DNA of 64,000 nucleotides from contig NZ_JAMBLR010000005.1 of the NCBI RefSeq assembly GCF_023336935.1, forward strand, positions 1 through 64,000. Reading direction: 5' to 3'. Both the position numbers and the translations under genes were made by a program. Shown here in pieces: positions 52,336-63,364 of this stretch. The DNA is from Phascolarctobacterium sp. ET69 (GTDB taxonomy: Bacteria; Bacillota; Negativicutes; Acidaminococcales; Acidaminococcaceae). The notes under the pieces are model-generated. The model searched no databases. It was not told where the DNA came from and saw only the letters and a list, made by a program, of their open reading frames with translations. Position 1 is the first letter of the stretch; every line of letters begins with the position of its first letter.

Positions 52336-54060
52336 TTAACGTATTTGCCGGTGATAGTGCGTGTGCAGGAGATTGTGTGCTTTTTCTCCAAGCGGTTTGC
52401 CCAGCCAAGTATCATAAAGTTCAATTATTTCAGGATTTTCGTGCGATTTTCGTAACTCATTGGCTCTGTCACAATCAAAGAGTCCCTTTCTGCGCAGTTT
52501 CCTGATTTCGGCATTAACCGGAACAGGCTGCCCGCCGCCGCCGATACATCCGCCCGGGCATGCCATTACTTCAATGAACTGATAATCGGCAGTGCCGTTT
52601 TTAACTCTTTCCAGCATTTCCATTGCCGATTTAAGAGTATGTACAACGGCAATTTTTATTTTTTTGCCGGCAATTTCAAGCTCCGCCTCGCGGGTATGTT
52701 CCATGCCGCGCACTTCTTCATAATCAACGTGCGGCAGGTTTTCACCGGCAAGCACATCGGCAACTGTTCTCAGCGCCGCTTCCATAACGCCGCCGGTTGT
52801 GCCGAAAATTACGCCCGCGCCGCTGCCCGTGCCAAGCGGAGAATCAAAGTTTTCTTCCGGCAGGTTTTTAAAATCAATGCCTGCTTCGCGTATCATGCGC
52901 CCAAGTTCGCGCGTGGTAATTACTATATCAACGTCGCGGTAACCGGAATCGCACATTTCAGGCCTTGCGGCTTCCGCCTTTTTGGCCGTGCACGGCATAA
53001 CAGATACACTGACTATTTTGGCAGGGTCAATGCCGGCTTTTTCCGGATAATAGGTTTTGGCGATTGCACCGAACATCTGCTGCGGCGATTTGGCCGTGGA
53101 AAGATGGTCCAAGAGCTCAGGATATTTCAGTTCAATCATATTAACCCAGCCCGGGCTGCACGAAGTAATCATTGGCAGCAGCCCGCCGTTTTGCAGGCGG
53201 TCTAAAAATTCATAACCTTCTTCCATAATGGTAAGGTCGGCAGAAAAATCAGTATCAAAAACTTTATCAAAACCCAGATGGCGCAGTGCTGCAACCATTT
53301 TGCCTGTTACAATGCTGCCGGGTTCCATGCCCAGTTCTTCGCCAATGGCAACGCGCACGGAAGGAGCAGTCTGCACAATAACGATTTTATCGGGGTCGTT
53401 AATGGCGTCCCAAACTTTCTCGGTGTCGTCGCGTTCAACAATGGCGCCGGTCGGGCAAACGCTGGCGCACTGGCCGCAGTAGCTGCACGCCACATTGCCG
53501 AGGTCCTGTTCAAACGCAGTTGAAACGATGGTATCAAACCCGCGGTTGGCAAAGCTGTAAACATTCATGCCCTGCACATCGCGGCAAACGCGTATACAGC
53601 GCCCGCAGAGAATACATTTTTCCTGGTCGCGCACAAGGCAGGGGTTGCTGCCGTCAATGGTATGGGCTTTGCGTGCGCCGCCTTCAAAGCGGATTTTGCG
53701 CAGGCCAAGGTCTGCGGCAATTTTTTGCAGTTCGCAGTCCCCGCTTTTCTGGCAGGACAGGCAGTCTTTGGGGTGGTTCGCCAAAAGCAGTTCAACAACC
53801 ATTTTGCGCGCTGCCCTTACTTTAGGCGTGTTGGTTTTAACTACCATGCCTTCCGCTACCGGATATACGCAGGAAGCGACAAGGCTTCTTGCCCCGCTTG
53901 CTTCCACCACGCACAGGCGGCAGGCGCCTTCCGGCGCAAGCTCCGGATGGTAGCACAGAGTTGGTATATAAATTCCGGCACTGCGTGCCGCTTCCAAAAT
54001 TGTTGCATTTTTAGGGGCCTGTACAGTTTGCCCATTAATTGTTAAGGTAACCATTTCCAT
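52336..54060 (-). CDS. hydA: [FeFe]-hydrogenase catalytic subunit (NADH-linked, HydA-type)
   Basis: 574 residues. From the N-terminus: a [2Fe-2S] domain (Cys near 36-65), a His/Cys3 cluster domain (HPKDCLSCQKSGDC near 95), two [4Fe-4S] motifs (CILCGRCIRVC, CSYCGQCASVC, about 145-200), and the H-cluster domain with L1 TSCSPGW (~298), L2 MPCTAKK (~355) and L3 CPGGCIGGG (~498). It makes or uses H2. With the NuoF- and NuoE-like partners upstream it should form an electron-bifurcating HydABC complex using NADH and ferredoxin. The maturases HydE, HydF and HydG are not in this window. Confidence 0.96.
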   Translation of the reverse strand: MEMVTLTINGQTVQAPKNATILEAARSAGIYIPTLCYHPELAPEGACRLCVVEASGARSLVASCVYPVAEGMVVKTNTPKVRAARKMVVELLLANHPKDCLSCQKSGDCELQKIAADLGLRKIRFEGGARKAHTIDGSNPCLVRDQEKCILCGRCIRVCRDVQGMNVYSFANRGFDTIVSTAFEQDLGNVACSYCGQCASVCPTGAIVERDDTEKVWDAINDPDKIVIVQTAPSVRVAIGEELGMEPGSIVTGKMVAALRHLGFDKVFDTDFSADLTIMEEGYEFLDRLQNGGLLPMITSCSPGWVNMIELKYPELLDHLSTAKSPQQMFGAIAKTYYPEKAGIDPAKIVSVSVMPCTAKKAEAARPEMCDSGYRDVDIVITTRELGRMIREAGIDFKNLPEENFDSPLGTGSGAGVIFGTTGGVMEAALRTVADVLAGENLPHVDYEEVRGMEHTREAELEIAGKKIKIAVVHTLKSAMEMLERVKNGTADYQFIEVMACPGGCIGGGGQPVPVNAEIRKLRRKGLFDCDRANELRKSHENPEIIELYDTWLGKPLGEKAHNLLHTHYHRQIR

Positions 54061-54072
54061 TGTTCTGCCCCC

Positions 54073-55863
54073 TTATCCCTTAACTATTGCCTTAAACGGG
54101 CAGGCTGCCATGCAGGCGCCGCATTTAATGCATTTAGTGGTATCAATAACGTGCTGGCTGCGCGGCTGGCCGCTGATGGCCTGAACCGGGCATTGGCGCG
54201 CGCAGAGGCCGCAGCCTTTGCATTTATCCGTAATCTGATAGTTGGCAAGTTTTTCACATACTCCTGCCGGACAGCGTTTTTCTTTAATATGTGCTTCGTA
54301 TTCGTCGCGGAAATATTTAAGCGTACTGAGTACGGGGTTAGGCGCTGTCTGCCCAAGGCCGCAGAGTGCAGTTTCTTTAATATTGCCGGCCAGTTCCTCC
54401 AAAAGTTCAATATCGCCTTCGCGCCCCTGCCCTTCCGTAATGCGGGTTAAAATTTCCAGCATACGTTTGGTGCCTTCGCGGCAGGGTGTGCATTTGCCGC
54501 AGGATTCGGACTGCGTAAAGTTAAGGAAGAATTTGGCAACATCAACCATGCAGGTATCTTCGTCCATAACTACAAGGCCGCCGCTGCCCATCATTGCGCC
54601 GACGGAAATCAGCGAATCGTAATCAACGGAAAGGTCGAGCATGGATTCCGGCAGGCAGCCGCCGGACGGGCCGCCAATCTGTACGGCTTTGAATTTTTTG
54701 CCATTGGTAATGCCGCCGCCGATATCAAAAATAATCTCGCGCATGGTAATGCCCATCGGCACTTCGGCAAGGCCTGTGTTGTTGATTTTGCCGGTAAGGG
54801 CAAATACTTTGGTGCCTTTGGATTTTTCCGTGCCGAAGCCGCAGTACCAATCTGCGCCGTTGGTAATAATGGAAGCTACGTTTGCGAAAGTTTCTACGTT
54901 GTTAATATTGGTAGGCTTGCCCCACAGGCCCGATACTGCCGGGAACGGCGGGCGCGGGCGCGGCATGCCGCGGCGTCCTTCGATAGATGCCATAAGCGCG
55001 GTTTCTTCGCCGCATACAAAGGCACCGGCGCCTTCTTTTATATGAATTTTAAAACTGAATTTGCTGCCGAAAATACTCTTGCCCAAAAGGCCCATTTGTT
55101 CGGCCTGGTCAATAGCTATGCGCAGGCGCTTGATAGCCAGCGGATATTCCGCACGCACATAAATATAGCCTTCGTCGGCACCGATGGCATAACCGCAGAT
55201 TGCCATACCTTCAAGCACTTTATGCGGGTCGCCTTCAAGCACGCTGCGGTCCATAAAAGCACCGGGGTCGCCCTCGTCGGCGTTACAGATAACATATTTT
55301 TTATCGTTTACGGAATTAGCGGCAAACTGCCATTTCATACCGGTGGGGAAACCGCCGCCGCCGCGTCCGCGCAGGCCGGATTTTTTAACTTCGTCAATAA
55401 CCTCCTGCGGAGTCATGGTGGTAACGGCTTTGGCAAGCGCCTCATAGCCGCCTACCGCAATATATTCTTCTATCTGTTCCGGGTTAATGGCGCCGCAGTG
55501 TTCAAGCACCAGGCGTTTTTGCTTTTTATAAAAATTAATTTCCGAATAGAAAGGAATCTGTTCATGCGTAAGCGGTTCGTGGTATAAAAGACGCTCAACA
55601 ATGCGCCCTTTAAACAAATGGCTTTCTACAATTTCTTCCACATCTTCCGGTTTTACGCGGCAGTAAAAAGTACCTTCCGGGTAAATAATTACCAGCGGGC
55701 CATGCTCGCAAAAGCCGTGGCAGCCGGTTTCTACAATCATAACCTCGTCGCTCAGCCCTTTTTGTTCAAGCTGTTTGGCAAACTCCAGCTGCACTTCTTT
55801 GCTGCCCGCAGATTTACAGCCGGTACCGCCGCAGACAAGGACATGTGCTCTTATATGCTGCAT
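54073..55863 (-). CDS. hydB: NuoF-like subunit of the bifurcating hydrogenase
   Basis: 596 residues. An N-terminal thioredoxin-like [2Fe-2S] domain (VLVCGGTGCKSAGS) is followed by the NADH/FMN domain (SGLRGRGGGGFPTGMKW, ICNADEGDPGAFMDR), a SLBB region, the [4Fe-4S] motif ESCGKCTPCREG and two C-terminal ferredoxin-type clusters (CKGCGLCARQCP, CIKCGACMAACP). This layout is that of HydB in Thermotoga and Moorella. It takes electrons from NADH and passes them to HydA. Gap of 12 bases to hydA. Confidence 0.95.
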   Translation of the reverse strand: MQHIRAHVLVCGGTGCKSAGSKEVQLEFAKQLEQKGLSDEVMIVETGCHGFCEHGPLVIIYPEGTFYCRVKPEDVEEIVESHLFKGRIVERLLYHEPLTHEQIPFYSEINFYKKQKRLVLEHCGAINPEQIEEYIAVGGYEALAKAVTTMTPQEVIDEVKKSGLRGRGGGGFPTGMKWQFAANSVNDKKYVICNADEGDPGAFMDRSVLEGDPHKVLEGMAICGYAIGADEGYIYVRAEYPLAIKRLRIAIDQAEQMGLLGKSIFGSKFSFKIHIKEGAGAFVCGEETALMASIEGRRGMPRPRPPFPAVSGLWGKPTNINNVETFANVASIITNGADWYCGFGTEKSKGTKVFALTGKINNTGLAEVPMGITMREIIFDIGGGITNGKKFKAVQIGGPSGGCLPESMLDLSVDYDSLISVGAMMGSGGLVVMDEDTCMVDVAKFFLNFTQSESCGKCTPCREGTKRMLEILTRITEGQGREGDIELLEELAGNIKETALCGLGQTAPNPVLSTLKYFRDEYEAHIKEKRCPAGVCEKLANYQITDKCKGCGLCARQCPVQAISGQPRSQHVIDTTKCIKCGACMAACPFKAIVKG

Positions 55864-56251: not shown

Positions 56252-56806
56252 TTATTCCTCCTGCCCGGCATGCAGCGCGCCAAGCTGCTGCCTCAGATAT
56301 TCTTCAGTCCAGCGGTAAATTTCCGGATGCGCAAAATCGGTGTCTTGCCCCAAAACCTCACGCACTTGGCGAGTGTCAAAGCAAAAAGCGCCGTTTGCCG
56401 CTTTATAGTTAAAAACAAGGTTAAGCTCAGGCGCGCCTGCCAGCAAAACGGCAATGCTGCCTGCAATATCGCCCAAGGGCGGACGGTCAATGTTATCTGC
56501 CTTAAAAGCGGCTTTAACAACTGTGCCCTCTCCCGGCTGCGATTTAATATCAAAATAACCGCCGCACTGGCTTGTTACCATATCCATAAAAGGTATGCCC
56601 ATGCCTACTTTGCGTGTAAGGCGTGTAGTAACAAACGGGTCGCGCACTTTTTTAACCATTTCTTCCGTCATGCCGCGCCCGTCGTCACTGATGGAAAAAG
56701 TAAAATATCCGTTTTCGTTTTCATCAATGTCAATTTGCAGATTACGGGCACCGGCCTCAACCGAGTTTTGCGCCAAATCAAGTATATGCAGTGAAAGTTC
56801 TCTCAT
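56252..56806 (-). CDS. GHKL-type ATPase in the hydrogenase operon
   Basis: 184 residues. The histidine-kinase-like ATP-binding fold is complete: N box LDLAQNSVEAGA, G1 SDDGRGM, a lid with DPFVTT and G2 GMGIPFM. There is no dimerisation/His domain and no membrane segment, so it is not a classical sensor kinase. A ~60-residue C-terminal part is unassigned. It is conserved in the same position in other [FeFe]-hydrogenase operons. Regulation or assembly of the enzyme is possible. Confidence 0.88.
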   Translation of the reverse strand: MRELSLHILDLAQNSVEAGARNLQIDIDENENGYFTFSISDDGRGMTEEMVKKVRDPFVTTRLTRKVGMGIPFMDMVTSQCGGYFDIKSQPGEGTVVKAAFKADNIDRPPLGDIAGSIAVLLAGAPELNLVFNYKAANGAFCFDTRQVREVLGQDTDFAHPEIYRWTEEYLRQQLGALHAGQEE

Positions 56807-56808
56807 AA

Positions 56809-57306
56809 TTACTGGTATTTTGCCAAAATAGCCTTTAATTTATCCGGCGTCAGCCTGCCGTGGGTATCTTCGTTAACCTGCATAACAGGGGCCAGGCCGC
56901 ATGCGCCGATGCAGGCAACCGTTTCCAGCGTAAAGCGCAGGTCGTCAGTTGTATGGCCAGCTTTAATGTCAAGTTCTTTTTCCAGCGCCTGCAGAATAGT
57001 TTTACCGCCGCGTACGTGGCAGGCAGTGCCCTGGCATACGCGGATAATATTGCGCCCGCGCGGATTAAGATGGAACTGCGAATAAAAAGTTACAACGCCG
57101 TAAATCTGCGCAATGGGGGTGCCGGTTTGTGCGGCAACATATTCCAGCGCGTCTTTAGGCAGATAATTATACAAGGATTGTACTTCCTGTAAAATCGGAA
57201 TCAGTGCGCCCTTAACGCCTTCATATTTGGCAAGGATTGCGTCAATGCGGGTCTTTTCCGGATTTTCGCCGCCGCAGCAGCTGCATGTTCTCTCCACAAA
57301 GCTCAT
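56809..57306 (-). CDS. hydC: NuoE-like [2Fe-2S] subunit of the bifurcating hydrogenase
   Basis: 165 residues from the ATG at 57306 (AGGAG ten bases upstream). A start at 57381 lies inside the inverted repeat and is unlikely. Four cluster cysteines appear in CQGTACHVRGG and VACIGACGLAP. The N-terminal CSCCGGEN adds three more Cys, which is unusual for NuoE and may bind an extra cluster. It is the first gene of the hydCBA unit, behind its own promoter. Confidence 0.93.
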   Translation of the reverse strand: MSFVERTCSCCGGENPEKTRIDAILAKYEGVKGALIPILQEVQSLYNYLPKDALEYVAAQTGTPIAQIYGVVTFYSQFHLNPRGRNIIRVCQGTACHVRGGKTILQALEKELDIKAGHTTDDLRFTLETVACIGACGLAPVMQVNEDTHGRLTPDKLKAILAKYQ

Positions 57307-57349
57307 AGTACATTCTCTCCTTACTGTTAAATTTAAATGTACATATATT

Positions 57350-57378
57350 ACTATAACAAAACACCGGCTTATATGCAA
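57350..57378 (-). promoter_or_regulatory. Promoter of the hydrogenase operon
   Basis: On the minus strand TTGCAT (57373-57378), 17 bases, TATAGT (57350-57355) with an extended -10 TGT. Confidence 0.55.
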
Positions 57379-57409
57379 CACTAATTAACATGTATACTTT
57401 AATTAGTGT
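57378..57409. promoter_or_regulatory. 11-base inverted repeat at the hydrogenase promoter
   Basis: ACACTAATTAA and TTAATTAGTGT are perfect complements, ten bases apart, abutting the -35 element. It has the look of a dimeric regulator site. It has no T-tract and is too AT-rich for a good terminator. Confidence 0.55.
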
Positions 57410-57423
57410 ACACTATATCATTT

Positions 57424-58194
57424 TTAATAATCACGGTTCTCCAAAAAACAGCCCGGCTGCCAGCTGCGTCCGTCCTCTGCCGCAAGCGCAAGTTTCAGCT
57501 CTGCCACCGTTAAACTTTTAACCGTAATTAAATTTTTAGGGCCGTTAATAAAGCTGTCCATCATGTGTGCGTCGCTGTCGGTAACATAGTTTAAGCCGCC
57601 AAGCGCCAGTTTCAGCTTCTGTTCTTTTAATTCTCTAATGCCGGCAGGGCTTATTTCAGCCGCTGCCAGCCCCATATCCGAAGGCAGAAAGCCAAGCTGC
57701 ATCAAAAGGCTGTACGAGGGCCTGTCAACATGCGCAGCTATTGCCATGCCGCCCATGGCGTTTACTTTTTGTATAACTTCCGCAGCAGGCAGTTTTAAAG
57801 GCCCAAGCAGCATGCGTTCTTCTTCGGCTATAAAGTTATCGTCATCATCAACAATAAACTGCGCGCCAAAACGCTCTGCGTTGTTTTTAAGCCCGCTCAT
57901 ATTGGCATCAACTATTTTCTGCCACGCAGCCAGCTGCTCCAGCGTATCAAACAGCACAACTATGTGCGCTTCTTCGCGGCATTCAACTTCCATGCCCGGA
58001 AAAACCTTAACACCGTAGTTTTTGGCTGCTTCAACCGCCGCCGCGGCATTGGCAGAAGCATTATGGTCCGTAATGGCAACCGCATCTACGCCGTACTGCG
58101 CCGCCCGCATAACAATATGGTGCGGCGTCATTTCTATTTCCGCGCAGGGCGAAAGCAGGGTATGGATATGGAAATCAGCCAGTAAGGTTTTCAT
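57424..58194 (-). CDS. PHP domain phosphoesterase-like protein
   Basis: 256 residues. PHP metal-binding motifs: DFHIHTLLSPCAEIEMTP at the start, ITDHNA near 40, GMEVECREEAH, a central AAHVDRPS and YVTDSDAHMM near 220. The family hydrolyses phosphoesters with two or three metal ions. Its substrate here is unknown. It overlaps the DRTGG gene by four bases. PHP, DRTGG and hydrogenase-like genes travel together in several anaerobes. Confidence 0.9.
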   Translation of the reverse strand: MKTLLADFHIHTLLSPCAEIEMTPHHIVMRAAQYGVDAVAITDHNASANAAAAVEAAKNYGVKVFPGMEVECREEAHIVVLFDTLEQLAAWQKIVDANMSGLKNNAERFGAQFIVDDDDNFIAEEERMLLGPLKLPAAEVIQKVNAMGGMAIAAHVDRPSYSLLMQLGFLPSDMGLAAAEISPAGIRELKEQKLKLALGGLNYVTDSDAHMMDSFINGPKNLITVKSLTVAELKLALAAEDGRSWQPGCFLENRDY

Positions 58195-58535
58195 TTTCCG
58201 TTGGTAATGCCAAGGGCATAAAGCTGCCCGGCTACAACATAAGCAGGCAAATCAGTAACGGCAATGTTTATATTGTTGGCATCGGCTTTTTTCAGCGTTT
58301 CTTCTTCTACCGGAGCGCCGCCTGCCACAACCACAGCCGCAAGGCCTATTAAAGATGCCACTGCAGCCACGTTCTGATGCCCCTGCATTGTTATCCATAC
58401 CATGCCGGGTTCGGCCTGACCCATAACATTGCTTAAAAGGTCAGAAGCATAGCCGCCCGTAACCTCGCCCTGCATGTCACCGGTATGCGTTAAAAGCTGC
58501 AAATTCAAACTGTTAATTACTTCCTTTATCTGCAT
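58191..58535 (-). CDS. DRTGG domain protein, copy A
   Basis: 114 residues from the ATG at 58535 (GGAG 12 bases upstream). The DRTGG pattern is GEVTGGYASDLLSNVMGQAEPGMVWIT with VAVASLIGLAAVVVAGG. In other proteins this domain sits beside CBS or phosphotransacetylase domains and is thought to bind ligands or regulate. Its start lies 22 bases inside the end of the preceding gene. Confidence 0.88.
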   Translation of the reverse strand: MQIKEVINSLNLQLLTHTGDMQGEVTGGYASDLLSNVMGQAEPGMVWITMQGHQNVAAVASLIGLAAVVVAGGAPVEEETLKKADANNINIAVTDLPAYVVAGQLYALGITNGK

Positions 58536-59892
58536 TGTTTTCTTCTCCGTTATCGTTAAAATCGTTATTGTCAATAGGTATCTGCCGTGCAAGTTCCAGC
58601 ATGCCGTGCGCAAGCTTTTTAACGCTGGCACGCAGTTTAAAAATGCAGTCTATTTCCGTTGCCTTACCCTGAACAATATCTTCCGCAAGGCACTGGCAGT
58701 TTGGCGCGCCGCACGCGCCGCAGTCCAGCCCCGGCAGGGAATTGAGCACTTCTTCCATTTGTTCAAACTTCTTCATAGCTTCCAAAATATCGTCGTCAAG
58801 CTGCATCATCGGGCGCGGCACCAGTTTTTTTACATAAGCGCCGGATTTTGGGAAACCCTCGCAGACCATGCTCTGCTTCATTGCCTCCACCCTGTCTGCC
58901 GGTTCGTGTTCACGCATCCGCGCAAGGCGCAGCTTAAGGTTCTTTTCCGCCACAAATTTATTTTCAGCCGTCAGCGGGCCGCCGATACAGCCGCCACTGC
59001 ATGCGCTGCATTCAACATAATCAACGTCCGGCATTTTATTCATGGAAATCTGCTCCAGCACGTCATACACGTTTTCTATGCCATGCACCGCCAGACCTTT
59101 TTCCACGCCTACGGCCGCAAGTTCGCCGCCGTAACAGCCCCAGCCCATGCCGTAGGAAGAAGCCGCGGTTATTTTTTTGCTTTCTTTAACGCTGCCGATA
59201 GAGCGCATCAGCCTGCCGTAAATTTCCGAAATGGCAATGCTGCCGCTGAGCTGTGTATGCACTACGTCTACCGACTGGCGGATATTGGCGTCTTTCGAAG
59301 GGCAGGGCGCCAGAAACCATACGCCAACCTGTGATTCTTCAAGCCCCAGCCGTTCCATAGCCTCTTTTTTTACATAAATTGCGGCAGCCTCCACAGGCGG
59401 AAGCACCGGCACTACCTGTTTGATAAGTTCCGGGAACTTAACCTGAATAAGGCGCAGCACCGCCGGGCAGGTGCAGGAAATTAAAGGCTTGCGCCCACCA
59501 TTGTAGTTTTTAATGTAGTCTGCAATTTCCAGGGAAATATATTCCGAAGCCACAGCAACGTCAAAAATTTCATCAAAGCCAAGGTTGCTTAAGCCCCCAC
59601 GTATTGTTTCCTCCGAAATATCGGCCGGAAACTGCGCGTACAGCGAAGGAGGAGGCAAAACGATATTATATTGGTATTTTTTTATTTCTTCCAGTTTGTC
59701 CGAATATGCTTCCACCGCGTGATACGCACAGCGGCGCATACATTCGCCGCAGTCTATGCAGCGCGCCGCTATAAGTTCGGCCTTGCCGTTGCGCACCCTG
59801 ATAGCATCGGTAGGGCACGCCTTAACGCAGGTTACGCAGCCTTTGCATTTGGAAGGCACAAAGCGGACGGAATGAATATAGCCTTCTGCCAA
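58513..59892 (-). CDS. [FeFe]-hydrogenase-like Fe-S protein with altered H-cluster motif
   Basis: 459 residues from a TTG at 59892, with AGAGGTG upstream. A GTG at 59901 would lie inside that site. Two N-terminal [4Fe-4S] motifs (CKGCVTCVKACP, CIDCGECMRRCA) are followed by a hydrogenase large-subunit domain. The first H-cluster motif reads ISCTCPAVL instead of TSCCPGW-like, the second LAPCPSKDA and the third CSACSGGCIGG. A C-terminal Fe4S domain (LDCGACGAPNCQC...C) completes it. It lacks a PAS domain. It may be a sensory or electron-transfer relative rather than a standard H2 producer. Confidence 0.85.
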   Translation of the reverse strand: MAEGYIHSVRFVPSKCKGCVTCVKACPTDAIRVRNGKAELIAARCIDCGECMRRCAYHAVEAYSDKLEEIKKYQYNIVLPPPSLYAQFPADISEETIRGGLSNLGFDEIFDVAVASEYISLEIADYIKNYNGGRKPLISCTCPAVLRLIQVKFPELIKQVVPVLPPVEAAAIYVKKEAMERLGLEESQVGVWFLAPCPSKDANIRQSVDVVHTQLSGSIAISEIYGRLMRSIGSVKESKKITAASSYGMGWGCYGGELAAVGVEKGLAVHGIENVYDVLEQISMNKMPDVDYVECSACSGGCIGGPLTAENKFVAEKNLKLRLARMREHEPADRVEAMKQSMVCEGFPKSGAYVKKLVPRPMMQLDDDILEAMKKFEQMEEVLNSLPGLDCGACGAPNCQCLAEDIVQGKATEIDCIFKLRASVKKLAHGMLELARQIPIDNNDFNDNGEENNADKGSN

Positions 59893-59906
59893 TGGGCTCA
59901 CCTCTT

Positions 59907-60350
59907 TTACAAGTCTTCGCTGATATGCTTAAACTCCATTGTGATGGAGGTTCCTTCTCCTATTTTAGATTGTATGTCAAATTTATCACTGCATTTCATC
60001 ATGTTGGGCAGGCCCATACCGGCGCCAAACCCCATCTGGCGGATATAATCCGGCGCTGTCGACCAGCCCTCCTGCATGGCAAGCTTAATATCCGGTATGC
60101 CGGGGCCGTGGTCGGTAATGTTTATTACGGTATGGTCCTGAAAAATTTCCGCAGCAACCTTGCCGCCGCCGGCGTGAATAAGCACGTTCATTTCCGCCTC
60201 ATAAGTACCGATGGCTATGCGGCGCACAATATCTGCCGGTATGCCTATTTTTTGCAGCATGCGCTTAATGCCGCTCGAGGCTTCCCCGGCACGGTCAAAA
60301 TCGCCGCCAGCTACGTCATAGCTTATTTTTACAGATTTAGCCTCCGTCAT
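59907..60350 (-). CDS. Anti-sigma-factor-like ATP-binding protein (SpoIIAB/RsbW type)
   Basis: 147 residues from the ATG at 60350, which overlaps the previous stop (ATGA). GHKL ATPase fold: a GTYEAEMNVLIHAGGG N-box equivalent, ITDHGPGIPD G1 and GFGAGMGLPNM G2. Such proteins often inhibit sigma factors or act as serine kinases. In this cluster it lies between a DRTGG gene and the hydrogenase-like gene. An H2- or redox-responsive switch is conceivable. Confidence 0.88.
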   Translation of the reverse strand: MTEAKSVKISYDVAGGDFDRAGEASSGIKRMLQKIGIPADIVRRIAIGTYEAEMNVLIHAGGGKVAAEIFQDHTVINITDHGPGIPDIKLAMQEGWSTAPDYIRQMGFGAGMGLPNMMKCSDKFDIQSKIGEGTSITMEFKHISEDL

Positions 60351-60715
60351 AACCCGCAGCCCCCTTTTTCCTGCGAACATCCGCGCAGCCCGGCCACATA
60401 TAACAGCCCGCAGGCTTCAAACAGAGTGCAGTTTGTTGAAAGCACCGGCATCTGCGCTTCACGCGCAAAGTCCAGAAAATCCGGCCCGGGCAGCTTGCCG
60501 CGTACTATAATAATGCCGCACAAATCGGTAATACCCGCCGTACGGATAACCTGCATATTTGTAAGGCCTGTACACAAAAGGGTATTGCATTTGGTAAAAG
60601 CCAGCACATCACTCATAAGGTCGCTGCCGCAGCAGGTTTCAACGTGGCGTTCCATCAATTCTTCTCCCACAAGGATTTTTGCTTTTAAAACCCTCTGTAC
60701 ATCCTTTAAATTCAT
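60347..60715 (-). CDS. DRTGG domain protein, copy B
   Basis: 122 residues from the ATG at 60715 with GGAGGG upstream. The start of a longer frame (60784) lies within the ligase gene. It has the DRTGG fold (ETCCGSDLMSDVLAFTK, TLLCTGLTNMQVIRTAGITDLCGIIIVRG, quoted in part). Cys-rich ends (CGSD..., CSQEKGGCGL) could bind a metal or cluster. First gene of the regulatory/hydrogenase-like set. Confidence 0.87.
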   Translation of the reverse strand: MNLKDVQRVLKAKILVGEELMERHVETCCGSDLMSDVLAFTKCNTLLCTGLTNMQVIRTAGITDLCGIIIVRGKLPGPDFLDFAREAQMPVLSTNCTLFEACGLLYVAGLRGCSQEKGGCGL

Positions 60716-60749
60716 TTTTCCCTCCATAAAAATTAAAAATTTTCTGATT

Positions 60750-62060
60750 TTATTGTAGCGTGTCTGTCCCGGTATGTAAAGCAATTTTCTGCCGCCCGCT
60801 GCGGCTCAGTCTGTTTAAAAGGCTGCACTGCATCATTACCATCGACACGCACCAGAACAAAAGTCCCATATCCATATTAAAGTATACATGGTCGGTAAGG
60901 CCGCCTGCCAAAATGCCAACCAACGCCGCCAGATACCCCTGCCCTACGGCGCGCAGCCACGGGCGCACGCCTTTTGCTGCCAGTTTAAAGGCATGCCAGG
61001 CAAAAACTGCAAGCACCAGCACAAAAACAATCAGCCCGTGCCAGCCAAGTTCTGCCAGAATATTAAGCATCAGGTTATGGCAGTGGTACATAATTACATT
61101 GGGGTTGTTCAAATAAAAATCGTATTCCGGGTAAATATACTGAAACCCGTACCAGCCTACGCCGTATGGGTGTTCTTCTATAATAAAAAGCGTGCTTTTA
61201 AGGTAGGCAAAGCGCAGCGCCACGGAGGTATCCTGCGTGCCGAAAATAGACATCAGCCTGTGCCATACCGCACCGTGCATAAAATATACGCCGCCTGCCG
61301 CGCAAACTGCCAGCGGAATGAGCCATTTGCGCCAGAAAAACAAAAAGTAAAAAATCATGGCGCAGGCGCAGGCCACCCAGTTGCCGCGCGAAAAAGTATA
61401 AACAAGGCTTATGCCAAGCACTGCTGCCAGCACCAGTAAAAAGCCGCGTATTTTACCTGTTGTTATTTTTATAAACGGCACGGCTGTGCTTAAAAGCAGC
61501 ACCAGATAACCGGCAAAAATGTTGGGGTTAATTAAAGTGCCGACAACGCGTGTTTTAAGTTCTGGAAACTGCGAAGGGTCTACCCACGGGTCGGTAGGCA
61601 CAACGCCGGTAAAATGCTGGTAAACGCCAAGCATGCCGTTGACAAAGCCTGCCAGCAAAAGCACGGCCAAAAGCAGCAAAGGGCGCGGCCATTCGCGGGG
61701 TTTCTGCCAGTCAAAATCAAGTTTGCCGTCGCCGCCATAGTGCAGCACAAGCCATACCAAAAGCACGTACTGCCCCACAACATAGCCAAAATTATAGGCC
61801 GAAACGGCACTATCTGCCGAAAAGCGCAGCGAATACCAGGTAATTGCCAAAAGCAGGTATAAAAGCCCCTGCTGCACACGCGGCAGCACAGGCACGCGCT
61901 TTAATTTGCGGTACTTAACGGCCACCGCCAGGCCCGCAAAAAAAGTTACCGCCACCATCAGCAGCGTAAACACCTGGTTTACCGGAATTACTGCCGCCGT
62001 AAAAAGCAGCAGCAAAAATACATATTTTTCTGCACTGTGGTATTTGGCAACGCCGCCCAT
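60750..62060 (-). CDS. O-antigen ligase family membrane protein
   Basis: 436 residues from the ATG at 62060, which overlaps the folC stop (TAATG). About eleven membrane helices. The Wzy_C/WaaL region is recognisable from FSRGNWVACACAMIFYFLF and the long outer loop with GVGWYGFQYIYPEYDFYLNNPNVIMYHCHNLMLN (quoted in part), including the conserved His in HCHNLML. It would attach or polymerise surface polysaccharide at the outer face of the inner membrane. This supports an LPS-bearing diderm. Confidence 0.88.
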   Translation of the reverse strand: MGGVAKYHSAEKYVFLLLLFTAAVIPVNQVFTLLMVAVTFFAGLAVAVKYRKLKRVPVLPRVQQGLLYLLLAITWYSLRFSADSAVSAYNFGYVVGQYVLLVWLVLHYGGDGKLDFDWQKPREWPRPLLLLAVLLLAGFVNGMLGVYQHFTGVVPTDPWVDPSQFPELKTRVVGTLINPNIFAGYLVLLLSTAVPFIKITTGKIRGFLLVLAAVLGISLVYTFSRGNWVACACAMIFYFLFFWRKWLIPLAVCAAGGVYFMHGAVWHRLMSIFGTQDTSVALRFAYLKSTLFIIEEHPYGVGWYGFQYIYPEYDFYLNNPNVIMYHCHNLMLNILAELGWHGLIVFVLVLAVFAWHAFKLAAKGVRPWLRAVGQGYLAALVGILAGGLTDHVYFNMDMGLLFWCVSMVMMQCSLLNRLSRSGRQKIALHTGTDTLQ

Positions 62061-63364
62061 TAATTGCACCTTGCCTTTTCTTCCATTAATCTTGTTTTAA
62101 ACGTGCCTACCAAATATAACGAACCGCAAATAACTACAACGCCGCCGCTGCCGGCTTCGTTAACCGCCTCAAGGTACGCCTCATAAACGTCACTGCGCGG
62201 CGCGGCGTTAGCGCCGATAATATTTGCCAGCTCCTGCGGCTTTGCAGCCCGTTCGCCGCCGTCTGCCGGTACGGTGTAAACCAAATCCATCGGGCGCACA
62301 ATGGTATGCAGAACTTGCTGCATATCCTTATCCCCCATCATACCGATAACAAAAATGCGTTTCTGATTCGGATAAAATTTATCAAGCGCCTTGCGCAGCG
62401 CTTCCGCACCGTTGGGGTTATGCGCGCCGTCTAAAATAACATCCGGCTTTTCGCCAATGCGCTCCAGCCTTCCGGGCCAGAAGGTATTGGCAACGCCGAT
62501 ATGCAGCGCAAGTTCGTTAATGCGGTCATCCTGCTTGGAAACAAGTTTTGCCGCCACAATCGCCACAGAAGCATTGGCAATCTGATGTTCACCGGCCAGT
62601 TTAATGGTGTAGTCGCTGCTGTAAACATCGCCTGCATGCAGGGTAAAGGTCTGCCCGTCCATCGTGCTTTCTTTTTCTTCGCCCCAAAAAGCGCGCCCGT
62701 AAATATACACCGGTGCCTGCTTAAACATGCTTACGGCGCGGATAGGCCCAATGGCGTCGTCACCCGCAGCTGCTGTAACAACAGGCACTTTTTCTTTTAT
62801 AATGCCTGCCTTCTGCATGGCAATGCGCTCTATGGTAGTGCCGAGCTTGTCGCAGTGGTCAAGCGCCACATTGGTAATAACGCTTACCACCGGCGTAATT
62901 ACGTTAGTGCTGTCCCACAGGCCGCCAAGCCCTACTTCTATAACGGCATAATCAACTTTTTCCAAAGCAAAATGCAAAAAAGCCGCCGCCGTTAAAACTT
63001 CAAACTGAGTGGGCTGTTCGCACACGCCCTTGGCAACAATGCTGTCTGCCGCCCGCTTAACGGCGCTTATAACCAGTGCAAAAGCCTCGTCCGTAATATC
63101 GTTATTGTTAATGCTGATACGTTCATTGTATTTTACAAGATGCGGCGAAATAAACTTGCCGGTTTTTAAATTACCTGCCAAAAGAATATTGGCAATCATG
63201 CTGCTAACGGAACCTTTGCCGTTGGTTCCCGTTACATGCACGCTTTTAAATTTATCCTGCGGATTGTCAAGTTCTTTTAAAAGCGCTTCAATGCGCTCCA
63301 TGCCAAGTTTAATGCCAAATTTTCCAAGGCTGTCCAAATAAGCCAAACTTTCATTATAATTCAT
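62060..63364 (-). CDS. folC: Folylpolyglutamate synthase / dihydrofolate synthase
   Basis: 434 residues. Mur-ligase-type fold with the P-loop VTGTNGKGSVSSMIANIL at about 45 and the second signature GGLWDSTNVI and VALDHCDKLG. The C-terminal part has LDGAHNPNGAEALRKAL. It adds glutamates to folates. Ribosome site CAGGAG lies before the ATG. It follows valS, as in many Firmicutes, but a terminator lies between them. Confidence 0.96.
   Translation of the reverse strand: MNYNESLAYLDSLGKFGIKLGMERIEALLKELDNPQDKFKSVHVTGTNGKGSVSSMIANILLAGNLKTGKFISPHLVKYNERISINNNDITDEAFALVISAVKRAADSIVAKGVCEQPTQFEVLTAAAFLHFALEKVDYAVIEVGLGGLWDSTNVITPVVSVITNVALDHCDKLGTTIERIAMQKAGIIKEKVPVVTAAAGDDAIGPIRAVSMFKQAPVYIYGRAFWGEEKESTMDGQTFTLHAGDVYSSDYTIKLAGEHQIANASVAIVAAKLVSKQDDRINELALHIGVANTFWPGRLERIGEKPDVILDGAHNPNGAEALRKALDKFYPNQKRIFVIGMMGDKDMQQVLHTIVRPMDLVYTVPADGGERAAKPQELANIIGANAAPRSDVYEAYLEAVNEAGSGGVVVICGSLYLVGTFKTRLMEEKARCN

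What the first reader, a model, noticed from the sequence alone, without database searches (positions are those of the whole stretch)
57307..60715. Regulatory-looking hydrogenase module feeding into an operon with an inverted repeat
Two DRTGG proteins, an anti-sigma-like ATPase, a hydrogenase relative with changed H-cluster motif (ISCTCPAVL) and a PHP protein form one overlapping gene chain. Next comes the bifurcating hydrogenase, whose promoter abuts an 11-base inverted repeat. The chain resembles a sensing cascade for H2 or redox state.
Basis: partly seen in the sequence, partly recalled or inferred. Interest (0 to 1): 0.55.

Follow-up and report, generated by a model that had tools for sequence, protein, structure and literature searches.

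The report
Sensory-type hydrogenase module beside working hydrogenase
A bacterium close to Phascolarctobacterium carries, next to its hydrogen enzyme, five small genes built around a hydrogenase relative that looks like a gas or redox sensor, and the company these genes keep in other bacteria suggests which proteins might carry its signal, a step that is still unknown.

Summary
On the - strand, DRTGG1 - SpoIIAB-like ATPase - H-domain protein (HydS) - DRTGG2 - PHP precede an NADH-dependent hydrogenase operon (HydC - ATPase - Trx-like - HydB - HydA). HydS fits the published description of the putative sensory group D (M2e) [FeFe]-hydrogenases, so the core is a known kind. "ISCTCPAVL" is a genus-level spelling of the usual SSACPAV: the H-cluster cysteines remain, the proton-relay cysteine is gone. 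All five genes recur together in 67 of 80 related loci. In 61 genomes of the class the ATPase occurs in exactly the 36 that have HydS. In two Clostridia, DRTGG1 and the ATPase are one fused protein whose gene overlaps a Rex repressor gene; in seven of seven class genomes with both HydS and Rex, rex lies beside hydA. I read the module as an H2/redox-responsive switch; kinase, adaptor and phosphoesterase steps are inferred, not shown. I found no paper on the DRTGG/PHP parts or this Rex linkage, in an open-licence library and partly capped listings.

The parts
60347..60715 (-). DRTGG1 (122 aa); D32 98%, S35 and T49 100% in 101 sequences
   Evidence: PF07085 over cut-off; alignment; fused to the ATPase in L103 and L111
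59907..60350 (-). ATPase1: SpoIIAB-like ATPase (147 aa), E51/N55 and the G boxes intact
   Evidence: PF02518, PF13581; nearest solved structures anti-sigma F factors; 107-sequence alignment; same 36 of 61 genomes as HydS
58513..59892 (-). HydS: group D (M2e)-type [FeFe]-hydrogenase-like protein, two N-terminal [4Fe-4S] motifs, H-domain, C-terminal Cx2Cx4Cx16C
   Evidence: PF02906, PF04060, Fer4 families; cysteine counts over 108 sequences; model pLDDT 91.2, Z 25.7-31.6 to [FeFe]-hydrogenases; clade with T. wiegelii HydS
58191..58535 (-). DRTGG2 (114 aa), D32, S35, T49 at 100% of 101 sequences, no Pfam DNA-binding domain
   Evidence: PF07085 21.2 bits, under cut-off; model pLDDT 96.4, Foldseek best hits AF1212 and the CBS-DRTGG pyrophosphatase
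57424..58194 (-). PHP phosphoesterase-like protein (256 aa), putative metal-site residues intact
   Evidence: PF02811; 94-sequence alignment; PDB neighbours include a putative metal-dependent phosphoesterase and a 5'-3' exoribonuclease
57404..57415 (.). distal palindrome TAGTGTACACTA of the composite hydC element
57376..57383 (-). proximal half-site TAGTGTTG overlapping the hydC -35
57350..57378 (-). hydC promoter read by eye: TTGCAT-17-TATAGT
   Evidence: sequence; not listed by the consensus scan
56809..57306 (-). HydC (NuoE-like, 165 aa)
   Evidence: PF01257 191.8 bits
56252..56806 (-). ATPase2, second histidine-kinase-like ATPase (184 aa)
   Evidence: PF02518 54 bits
55882..56283 (-). Trx2: thioredoxin-like [2Fe-2S] protein (133 aa)
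   Evidence: NF041612 43.8 bits, under its cut-off of 150
54073..55863 (-). HydB (NuoF-like, 596 aa)
   Evidence: PF01512, PF10589
52336..54060 (-). HydA, NADH-dependent [FeFe]-hydrogenase group A6 (574 aa)
   Evidence: NF040763 911.5 bits, cut-off 765

Best explanation
The locus is a group D sensory-hydrogenase module placed to control the neighbouring NADH-dependent hydrogenase HydABC (bifurcating type by gene content; bifurcation not tested). HydS carries an H-cluster in a pocket that lacks the usual proton-relay cysteine, so it should turn over slowly and settle at the ambient H2/H+ or ferredoxin potential. The resulting change in HydS is read by the DRTGG1-ATPase1 pair, which acts as one unit; ATPase1 has an intact SpoIIAB-type active site and most likely phosphorylates, or holds and releases in an ATP-dependent way, the DRTGG adaptor(s), whose invariant S35 is the best candidate site. 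The PHP protein reverses the state. The output adjusts HydABC synthesis or activity. In several relatives the transcriptional arm is probably Rex, encoded in or beside the operon; in the window's family Rex is gone, and another, unidentified protein, most likely an activator, acts at the composite hydC element. Shown: gene content, order, conservation, co-occurrence, one fusion in two loci, Rex adjacency, Rex-type operators in relatives, composite element. Inferred: sensing, signal direction, phosphorylation, the phosphosite, and the link from module to promoter.
For: HydS: 108 of 108 aligned full-length proteins keep the four H-cluster cysteines and the C-terminal Cx2Cx4Cx16C, and 0 of 108 have Cys at the proton-relay position 299 (A 83, T 15, S 6, other 4) (76 of the 108 come, whose search patterns include the C-terminal and L2 motifs, so those two are partly selected). 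The own genome has HydE, HydF and HydG over cut-off. All five module genes in 67 of 80 loci; counting only loci with enough flank: ATPase1 75 of 78, DRTGG1 69 of 76, DRTGG2 72 of 79, PHP 67 of 75, HydB/HydA downstream on the same strand 34 of 49. ATPase1 in 36 of 36 HydS-positive and 0 of 25 HydS-negative genomes, although 9 of those 25 have an A6 HydA. DRTGG1-ATPase1 fusion in L103 and L111 (2 of 80 loci), its gene overlapping rex by 4 nt. The rex and hydA matches lie 53-462 nt apart in 7 of 7 class genomes with HydS, A6 HydA and Rex; in the 7 with A6 HydA and Rex but no HydS they lie far apart (3) or on different contigs (4). Rex-type operator (recalled consensus) with 0-1 mismatch: 18 in 1.2 Mb, 14 of them in module or hydC upstream windows (3% of the sequence; 13 of 74 loci); six scrambled controls gave 0-1 there. 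ATPase1-HydS directly after a histidine kinase and response regulator in L105, and the same kinds of gene with others between in L110; BTAD activator 35 nt upstream of the core in L065.
Against: No activity, H2 response or protein contact was tested. None of the five products has a Pfam DNA-binding domain. [quoted passage not shown] Of 36 HydS-positive genomes 6 lack an over-cut-off A6 HydA; two of these (G007, G060) have partial matches that look cut by contig ends and four (G016, G027, G031, G032) have a full-length match of 727-749 bits elsewhere, just under the cut-off of 765, so the tie to HydABC is loose. HydS did not track HydF (33 of 36 against 21 of 25), and two genomes of one genus keep HydS while HydE, F and G were not found. 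S35 may be structural. Rex-type sites within one mismatch occur in only 13 of 74 loci, and rex was found near the module in 7 of the 77 loci clustered. In G046 rex is cut by a contig start, so its distance from hydA is unknown. Window HydS has Ala, not Ser/Thr, at position 353.
Confidence: 0.6

Rival explanations
1. The module is regulatory but acts on the HydABC protein, not on its promoter: ATPase1/DRTGG/PHP adjust assembly, activity or bifurcation by binding or modifying HydABC, and promoter control is separate.
For: No Pfam DNA-binding domain in the five products; ATPase2 or Trx2 lies downstream on the same strand in 38 of 58 loci with enough flank, so the hydABC operon has such small partners too; in the window a 117-nt gap with its own promoter (read by eye) separates the two units.
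Against: DRTGG1-ATPase1-HydS persists without the HydABC operon beside it in L060, L061 and L065, although these genomes hold a HydA match just under the A6 cut-off elsewhere; rex overlaps the fused DRTGG1-ATPase1 gene.
Confidence: 0.25
2. HydS is an ordinary low-activity ferredoxin-linked hydrogenase, and the small proteins are accessory factors for it; there is no signalling.
For: Group D TamHydS is catalytic and reversible (PMC8163306, passages); PMC3608648 Table 5 (passage) lists the Thermoanaerobacter group D-like gene as Fd-linked; all H-cluster ligands are kept.
Against: The proton-relay cysteine is absent in 108 of 108; constant pairing with a kinase-like ATPase; two-component, BTAD and Rex neighbours in some lineages.
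Confidence: 0.1
3. The 57378-57409 repeat is incidental: the -10-like TATACT and AT-rich promoter sequence explain the palindromes, and there is no operator.
For: At several of the other genome copies of TAGTRTAYACTA, TATACT sits where a -10 hexamer would (by eye); the 11-nt arms are not conserved at full length; 21 of 31 upstream regions lack the two-part element at 2 mismatches or fewer.
Against: The two-part element with fixed 20-21 nt spacing is found with at most 2 mismatches in the window and 9 relatives (four genera in all; 10 of 31 upstream regions), against 7 of 6200 simple shuffles at up to 3 mismatches (the pattern was drawn from these same sequences and relatives are not independent, so this is not a significance test); TAGTRTAYACTA has 6 exact copies in the genome, and 21 against 6 for the reversed control with up to 1 mismatch.
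Confidence: 0.2

Closest known systems
Group D (M2e) putative sensory [FeFe]-hydrogenase TamHydS, Thermoanaerobacter mathranii (PMC8163306, PMC13104023: abstracts and passages seen)
   Same: Two N-terminal [4Fe-4S] motifs, H-domain without Cys299, C-terminal Cx2Cx4Cx16C, no PAS domain, HK-like ATPase beside it, upstream of a trimeric bifurcating hydrogenase.
   Different: Ala instead of Ser/Thr at position 353. Land et al. name an AraC-family regulator as the other flanking gene; in T. wiegelii (L132) the genes on either side of the ATPase-HydS pair are DRTGG proteins without a Pfam DNA-binding domain (one has a sub-cut-off PucR match). T. mathranii itself was not examined.
Thermoanaerobacter loci Tmath_0862/0865-0869 and Thewi_00017850/00017870-00017920 (PMC3608648, passages seen)
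   Same: Group-D-like hydrogenase and a histidine kinase protein upstream of the bifurcating operon; L132 is the T. wiegelii Rt8.B1 genome.
   Different: The passages seen name neither DRTGG nor PHP genes; the T. wiegelii hydC upstream region has a Rex-type site (1 mismatch), the window has none.
Group C (M2f) HydS with PAS domain; Hfs operon of Thermoanaerobacterium and R. albus HydS (PMC11837493, passages seen; the original R. albus paper is not held)
   Same: Sensory-type [FeFe]-hydrogenase proteins; Hfs has a serine-phosphatase homologue, HfsC.
   Different: No PAS domain here; a kinase-like ATPase with DRTGG and PHP proteins instead of HfsC.
SpoIIAB/RsbW partner-switching kinases (mechanism recalled)
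   Same: ATPase fold with N-box Glu and Asn; anti-sigma F factors are the nearest solved structures of ATPase1.
   Different: Small DRTGG proteins instead of STAS-domain antagonists; no sigma factor among the products annotated; PHP instead of PP2C phosphatase.
Rex redox-sensing repressor (function recalled)
   Same: Gene and operator-like sites next to the same module in relatives.
   Different: Not over cut-off in the window's genome or in any of the 37 genomes of its family searched (one weak match, G018, 24.8 bits).

Membership tests
Group D (M2e) [FeFe]-hydrogenases | H-domain with the four H-cluster cysteines | tested here: met
   C142, C197, C298, C302; 108 of 108; Z 25.7-31.6 to [FeFe]-hydrogenases in the 50 rows shown
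Group D (M2e) [FeFe]-hydrogenases | Two N-terminal [4Fe-4S] motifs | tested here: met
   Fer4_10 over cut-off; eight cysteines at 100% of 108
Group D (M2e) [FeFe]-hydrogenases | C-terminal Cx2Cx4Cx16C | tested here: met
   C391, C394, C399, C416; 108 of 108 (partly selected by the patterns); PF04060 over cut-off
Group D (M2e) [FeFe]-hydrogenases | Cys299 not conserved | tested here: met
   T141 in the window; 0 of 108 Cys
Group D (M2e) [FeFe]-hydrogenases | No PAS domain (separates it from group C) | tested here: met
   No PAS family at E 0.001 in Pfam
Group D (M2e) [FeFe]-hydrogenases | Met353 replaced, by Ser/Thr as a rule (reported as well conserved, not as defining) | tested here: inconclusive
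   Met is lost, but the window has Ala195; 99 of 108 have Ser/Thr and 9 Ala
Group D (M2e) [FeFe]-hydrogenases | Clade with a named group D-like protein, apart from group A | tested here: met
   24-row tree: 16 HydS rows incl. T. wiegelii, support 98/96; HydA rows apart. No labelled group B or C reference; one MCP-fused row and one own-genome row have long branches whose places are unsure
Group D (M2e) [FeFe]-hydrogenases | H2-responsive H-cluster | not testable with these tools
   needs spectroscopy; maturases HydE, F, G are present in the genome
SpoIIAB/RsbW anti-sigma kinases | N-box Glu and Asn, G boxes (motif names recalled) | tested here: met
   E51, N55, D80, G82, G84 at 100% of 107
SpoIIAB/RsbW anti-sigma kinases | Passes the family model for anti-sigma F (TIGR01925) | tested here: not met
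   49.5 bits against a cut-off of 135; so SpoIIAB-like, not filed as a member
Rex regulon | rex gene in the genome | tested here: not met
   PF06971: 0 matches in G000; 7 of 14 control genomes ring
Rex regulon | Rex-type operator (recalled consensus) upstream of hydC | tested here: not met
   No site with 3 or fewer mismatches in window 56801-61200; the three found have 4

The most novel reading that the evidence does not exclude
A signalling system of a new type: a hydrogenase-derived H2/redox sensor drives a SpoIIAB-like serine kinase that phosphorylates DRTGG adaptor proteins (DRTGG1, held by or fused to the kinase, and DRTGG2), a PHP phosphoesterase resets them, and interchangeable transcription factors (Rex, two-component systems, a BTAD activator, an unknown factor in the window's family) serve as output.
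Probability: 0.3. Interest if true: 0.8.

Novelty: new variant of a known kind. Interest (0 to 1): 0.55.

Why it matters
How group D hydrogenases would pass on an H2 signal is left open in the 2020 and 2026 papers (PMC8163306, PMC13104023, passages seen). The comparison names concrete partners: an ATPase present exactly where HydS is in the 61 genomes searched, joined to a DRTGG protein in two loci, and Rex in the same gene chain there. It suggests that the AraC regulator cited beside TamHydS may be a DRTGG protein, and it offers a family without Rex in which a different promoter element can be tested. If the switch works as read, it would add a sensor-kinase arrangement that I do not know from any described system.

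Tried and rejected
Rex as regulator of the window promoter: rejected (no rex in the genome; no operator-like site). The inverted repeat as a terminator: no T-run follows it and the scan did not list it. A TAGTRTAYACTA regulon (malic enzyme, a PFOR-like oxidoreductase, acetate kinase, PPDK-like; names from reading translations): attractive, but TATACT sits at a -10-like place in several and one exact site lies before a tRNA-like gene, so not claimed. HydS as a 4Fe-4S-only protein without an H-cluster: HydS did not track HydF and the few maturase-less genomes leave it open. Rex control of hydrogenase genes in other bacteria I recall as known; searches list papers (12 of 126 and 10 of 360 shown), none opened for this. 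DRTGG with hydrogenase found one paper, whose DRTGG gene matters for growth on L-lactate; (0, 4 and 1 papers) had nothing on the DRTGG/PHP parts in the listing, and one search showed 20 of 7,824. (Phascolarctobacterium and hydrogenase): listing only, nothing used. VIA-align rows mostly test HydS residues 4-363, so the C-terminal domain is barely tested there.

In one search the misses L107 and L151 for ATPase1, and L151 for DRTGG1, are ORF-boundary artefacts (one search shows the genes); L103 and L111 count as missing DRTGG1 but carry it fused. Only full-length, stop-free proteins entered (32 own or unnamed-genome HydS and 76); interrupted or partial copies such as those of L037, L042 and L050 were left out. 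L091, L093 and L094 were dropped there as repeats of unnamed contigs, L072 and L073 (HydA picked as HydS) and L071 (DRTGG1) before counting. HydS-positive means my reading (E 5e-65 or better; G060 and G002 in pieces). The reversed control gave 0, although base frequencies alone would predict several.

Full report
What is there. The window belongs to a 1.88-Mb genome near Phascolarctobacterium: L091, an uncultured Phascolarctobacterium, encodes a HydS 90% identical, and L092 of the same genus name is placed in Acidaminococcaceae. On the - strand five genes run DRTGG1, ATPase1, HydS, DRTGG2, PHP (60715 to 57424), followed after 117 nt by HydC, ATPase2, Trx2, HydB and HydA. Three of four junctions in the five-gene chain overlap. 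HydA passes the NCBIfam model for NADH-dependent group A6 hydrogenases (911.5 bits, cut-off 765); that the complex bifurcates is inferred from gene content. The genome holds four H-domain proteins and HydE, HydF and HydG over their cut-offs.

The hydrogenase relative. HydS has two N-terminal [4Fe-4S] motifs, an H-domain and a C-terminal Cx2Cx4Cx16C, and no PAS domain. These are the features given for group D (M2e) in PMC8163306 (abstract and passages seen). Across 108 full-length HydS proteins all four H-cluster cysteines are kept in 108, Cys299 is replaced in 108 (A 83, T 15, S 6, other 4), and the Met353 place is T 56, S 43, A 9. ISCTCPAVL in the window genus is a local spelling of SSACPAV. 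The predicted model (pLDDT 91.2) aligns with [FeFe]-hydrogenases at Z 25.7-31.6, rmsd 2.6-3.3, 282-364 residues, in the 50 rows shown. In a 24-row tree HydS groups with T. wiegelii HydS and 14 others (98/96), apart from HydA (some long branches); PMC3608648 (passages) says that the gene upstream of the bifurcating operon in Thermoanaerobacter has group D-like architecture.

The module is conserved. In 80 loci fetched with HydS alone as query, 67 have all five genes. With enough flank, the neighbours were: ATPase1 75 of 78 loci, DRTGG1 69 of 76, DRTGG2 72 of 79, PHP 67 of 75, HydB/HydA downstream on the same strand 34 of 49 (artefacts among the misses are listed under Tried and rejected). The hydABC operon is divergent from the module in L125, L158, L166 and L169. 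Loci labelled Deltaproteobacteria, Syntrophorhabdales, Spirochaetes and Armatimonadetes are included; the two spirochaete loci lack DRTGG2 and PHP, and these labels come from metagenome bins. In 61 genomes of the class (Negativicutes by recall; own included), HydS occurs in 36 (counting G002 and G060, where it is in pieces) and ATPase1 in exactly the same 36. A6 HydA over cut-off occurs in 30 of the 36 and in 9 of the other 25. So the ATPase is tied to HydS, and the tie to HydABC is looser. In three genomes of one genus only DRTGG1-ATPase1-HydS remains beside each other (L060, L061, L065); these genomes have a HydA match just under the A6 cut-off elsewhere (727-736 bits).

Active sites. ATPase1 keeps E51, N55 and the G-box residues at 100% of 107; its nearest solved structures are anti-sigma F factors, though it fails the anti-sigma F model. 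PHP keeps H9, H11, D43, H44, E69, H77, H155, D208 and H210 at 100% of 94. DRTGG1 and DRTGG2 share D32 (98% and 100%), S35 and T49 (100% in both, 101 sequences each). In the DRTGG2 model S35 lies at the start of helix 34-40. The placing of S35 as phosphosite is inference.

Fusion and regulators. In L103 (Tepidanaerobacter) and L111 (a Thermosediminibacteraceae bin) DRTGG1 and ATPase1 form one 269-aa protein whose gene overlaps the end of a rex gene by 4 nt; Pfam finds the domains of both. In L095, L098, L099 and L101 rex follows hydA. In the 61-genome set Rex over cut-off occurs in 20. In 7 of 7 genomes with HydS, A6 HydA and Rex, the two matches lie 53-462 nt apart. In the 7 with A6 HydA and Rex but no HydS they are 0.45-2.7 Mb apart (3) or on different contigs (4; in G046 rex is cut by a contig start, so adjacency there cannot be excluded) (Fisher p 0.0006 if all four are taken as apart, relatedness not corrected). 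Rex-type operators (consensus recalled) with 0-1 mismatch: 18 in 1.2 Mb, 14 in upstream windows making up 3% of it; six scrambled palindromes gave 0-1 there. L105 has histidine kinase, OmpR-type regulator, ATPase1, HydS and an MCP-fused H-domain protein in a row; L110 has a kinase-regulator pair, other genes, CheW, ATPase1, HydS; L065 has a BTAD activator 35 nt before DRTGG1.

The window promoter. Rex is absent from the genome and not over cut-off in the other 36 genomes of its family (one weak match in G018), and no Rex-type site lies there. The hydC promoter, read by eye, has a good -10 and a poor -35 (TTGCAT). Overlapping it is TAGTRTTG, and 20-21 nt upstream TAGTRTAYACTA. This pair, with at most 2 mismatches in all, is found in 10 of 31 upstream regions, all in the window's family (genera g1, g2, g3, g7), against 7 of 6200 simple shuffles at up to 3 mismatches; the pattern came from these sequences, so the shuffle figure is a yardstick, not a test. 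A poor -35 with a fixed upstream element fits an activator; that is inference. TAGTRTAYACTA has six exact copies in the genome, some at -10-like positions, so no regulon is claimed.

Reading. The best account is a group D sensor module that adjusts HydABC, with the DRTGG1-ATPase1 unit as first receiver. Its sensing, kinase and reset steps are inferred. Against a simple version stand the unresponsive C-terminal cluster of TamHydS (PMC13104023), genomes with the core but no HydABC operon beside it, and a genus that keeps HydS and HydABC in which HydE, F and G were not found. The core is known in kind; the DRTGG/PHP parts, the constant ATPase, the fusion and the Rex linkage I did not find in print (open-licence PMC library only, several listings capped).

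Noticed in passing
G037 and G040 (L056, L055): Two genomes of one genus (95% and 75% complete) keep HydS and HydABC with intact cysteine motifs, yet no HydF over cut-off and no HydE or HydG at E 1e-40 is found in either. Either assembly gaps in both or hydrogenases without known maturases.
   Followed up: partly
window 52336-54060 (HydA): All 65 HydA proteins compared have TSCSP at loop L1, that is Ser at the place aligned with Cys142 of HydS, the H-cluster ligand Cys300. Probably known for this group; not looked up.
   Followed up: no
G000 C2:364318, C3:180521, C3:342048, C4:58127, C5:57404: Exact TAGTRTAYACTA copies lie before malic enzyme-, PFOR-, acetate kinase- and PPDK-like genes (named by reading) and hydC, a coherent pyruvate/H2 set, but some at -10-like positions.
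   Followed up: partly
G002:C25:12443-13820 (L050), G005:C19 (L037): HydS is split over two frames in G002 and has one stop inside in G005, in the window's own genus; sequencing error or decay, not resolved.
   Followed up: no
L068 (G017), L069 (G028): Genomes of genus g13 give only short matches to the first 77 residues of HydS; remnants or unrelated ferredoxin domains.
   Followed up: no
L105:10407-12320: A 637-aa protein joining Fer4, H-domain, FeS and MCP signalling domains sits just after HydS, a putative chemotaxis-type hydrogenase sensor.
   Followed up: no
window 60750-63364: A folC-like and an O-antigen-ligase-like gene (named by reading) precede the module in the same order in many of the class loci, although no functional link is evident.
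   Followed up: no
L060:10268-13320: The BTAD-type activator upstream of the core is split into two open frames in L060 but whole in L065.
   Followed up: no
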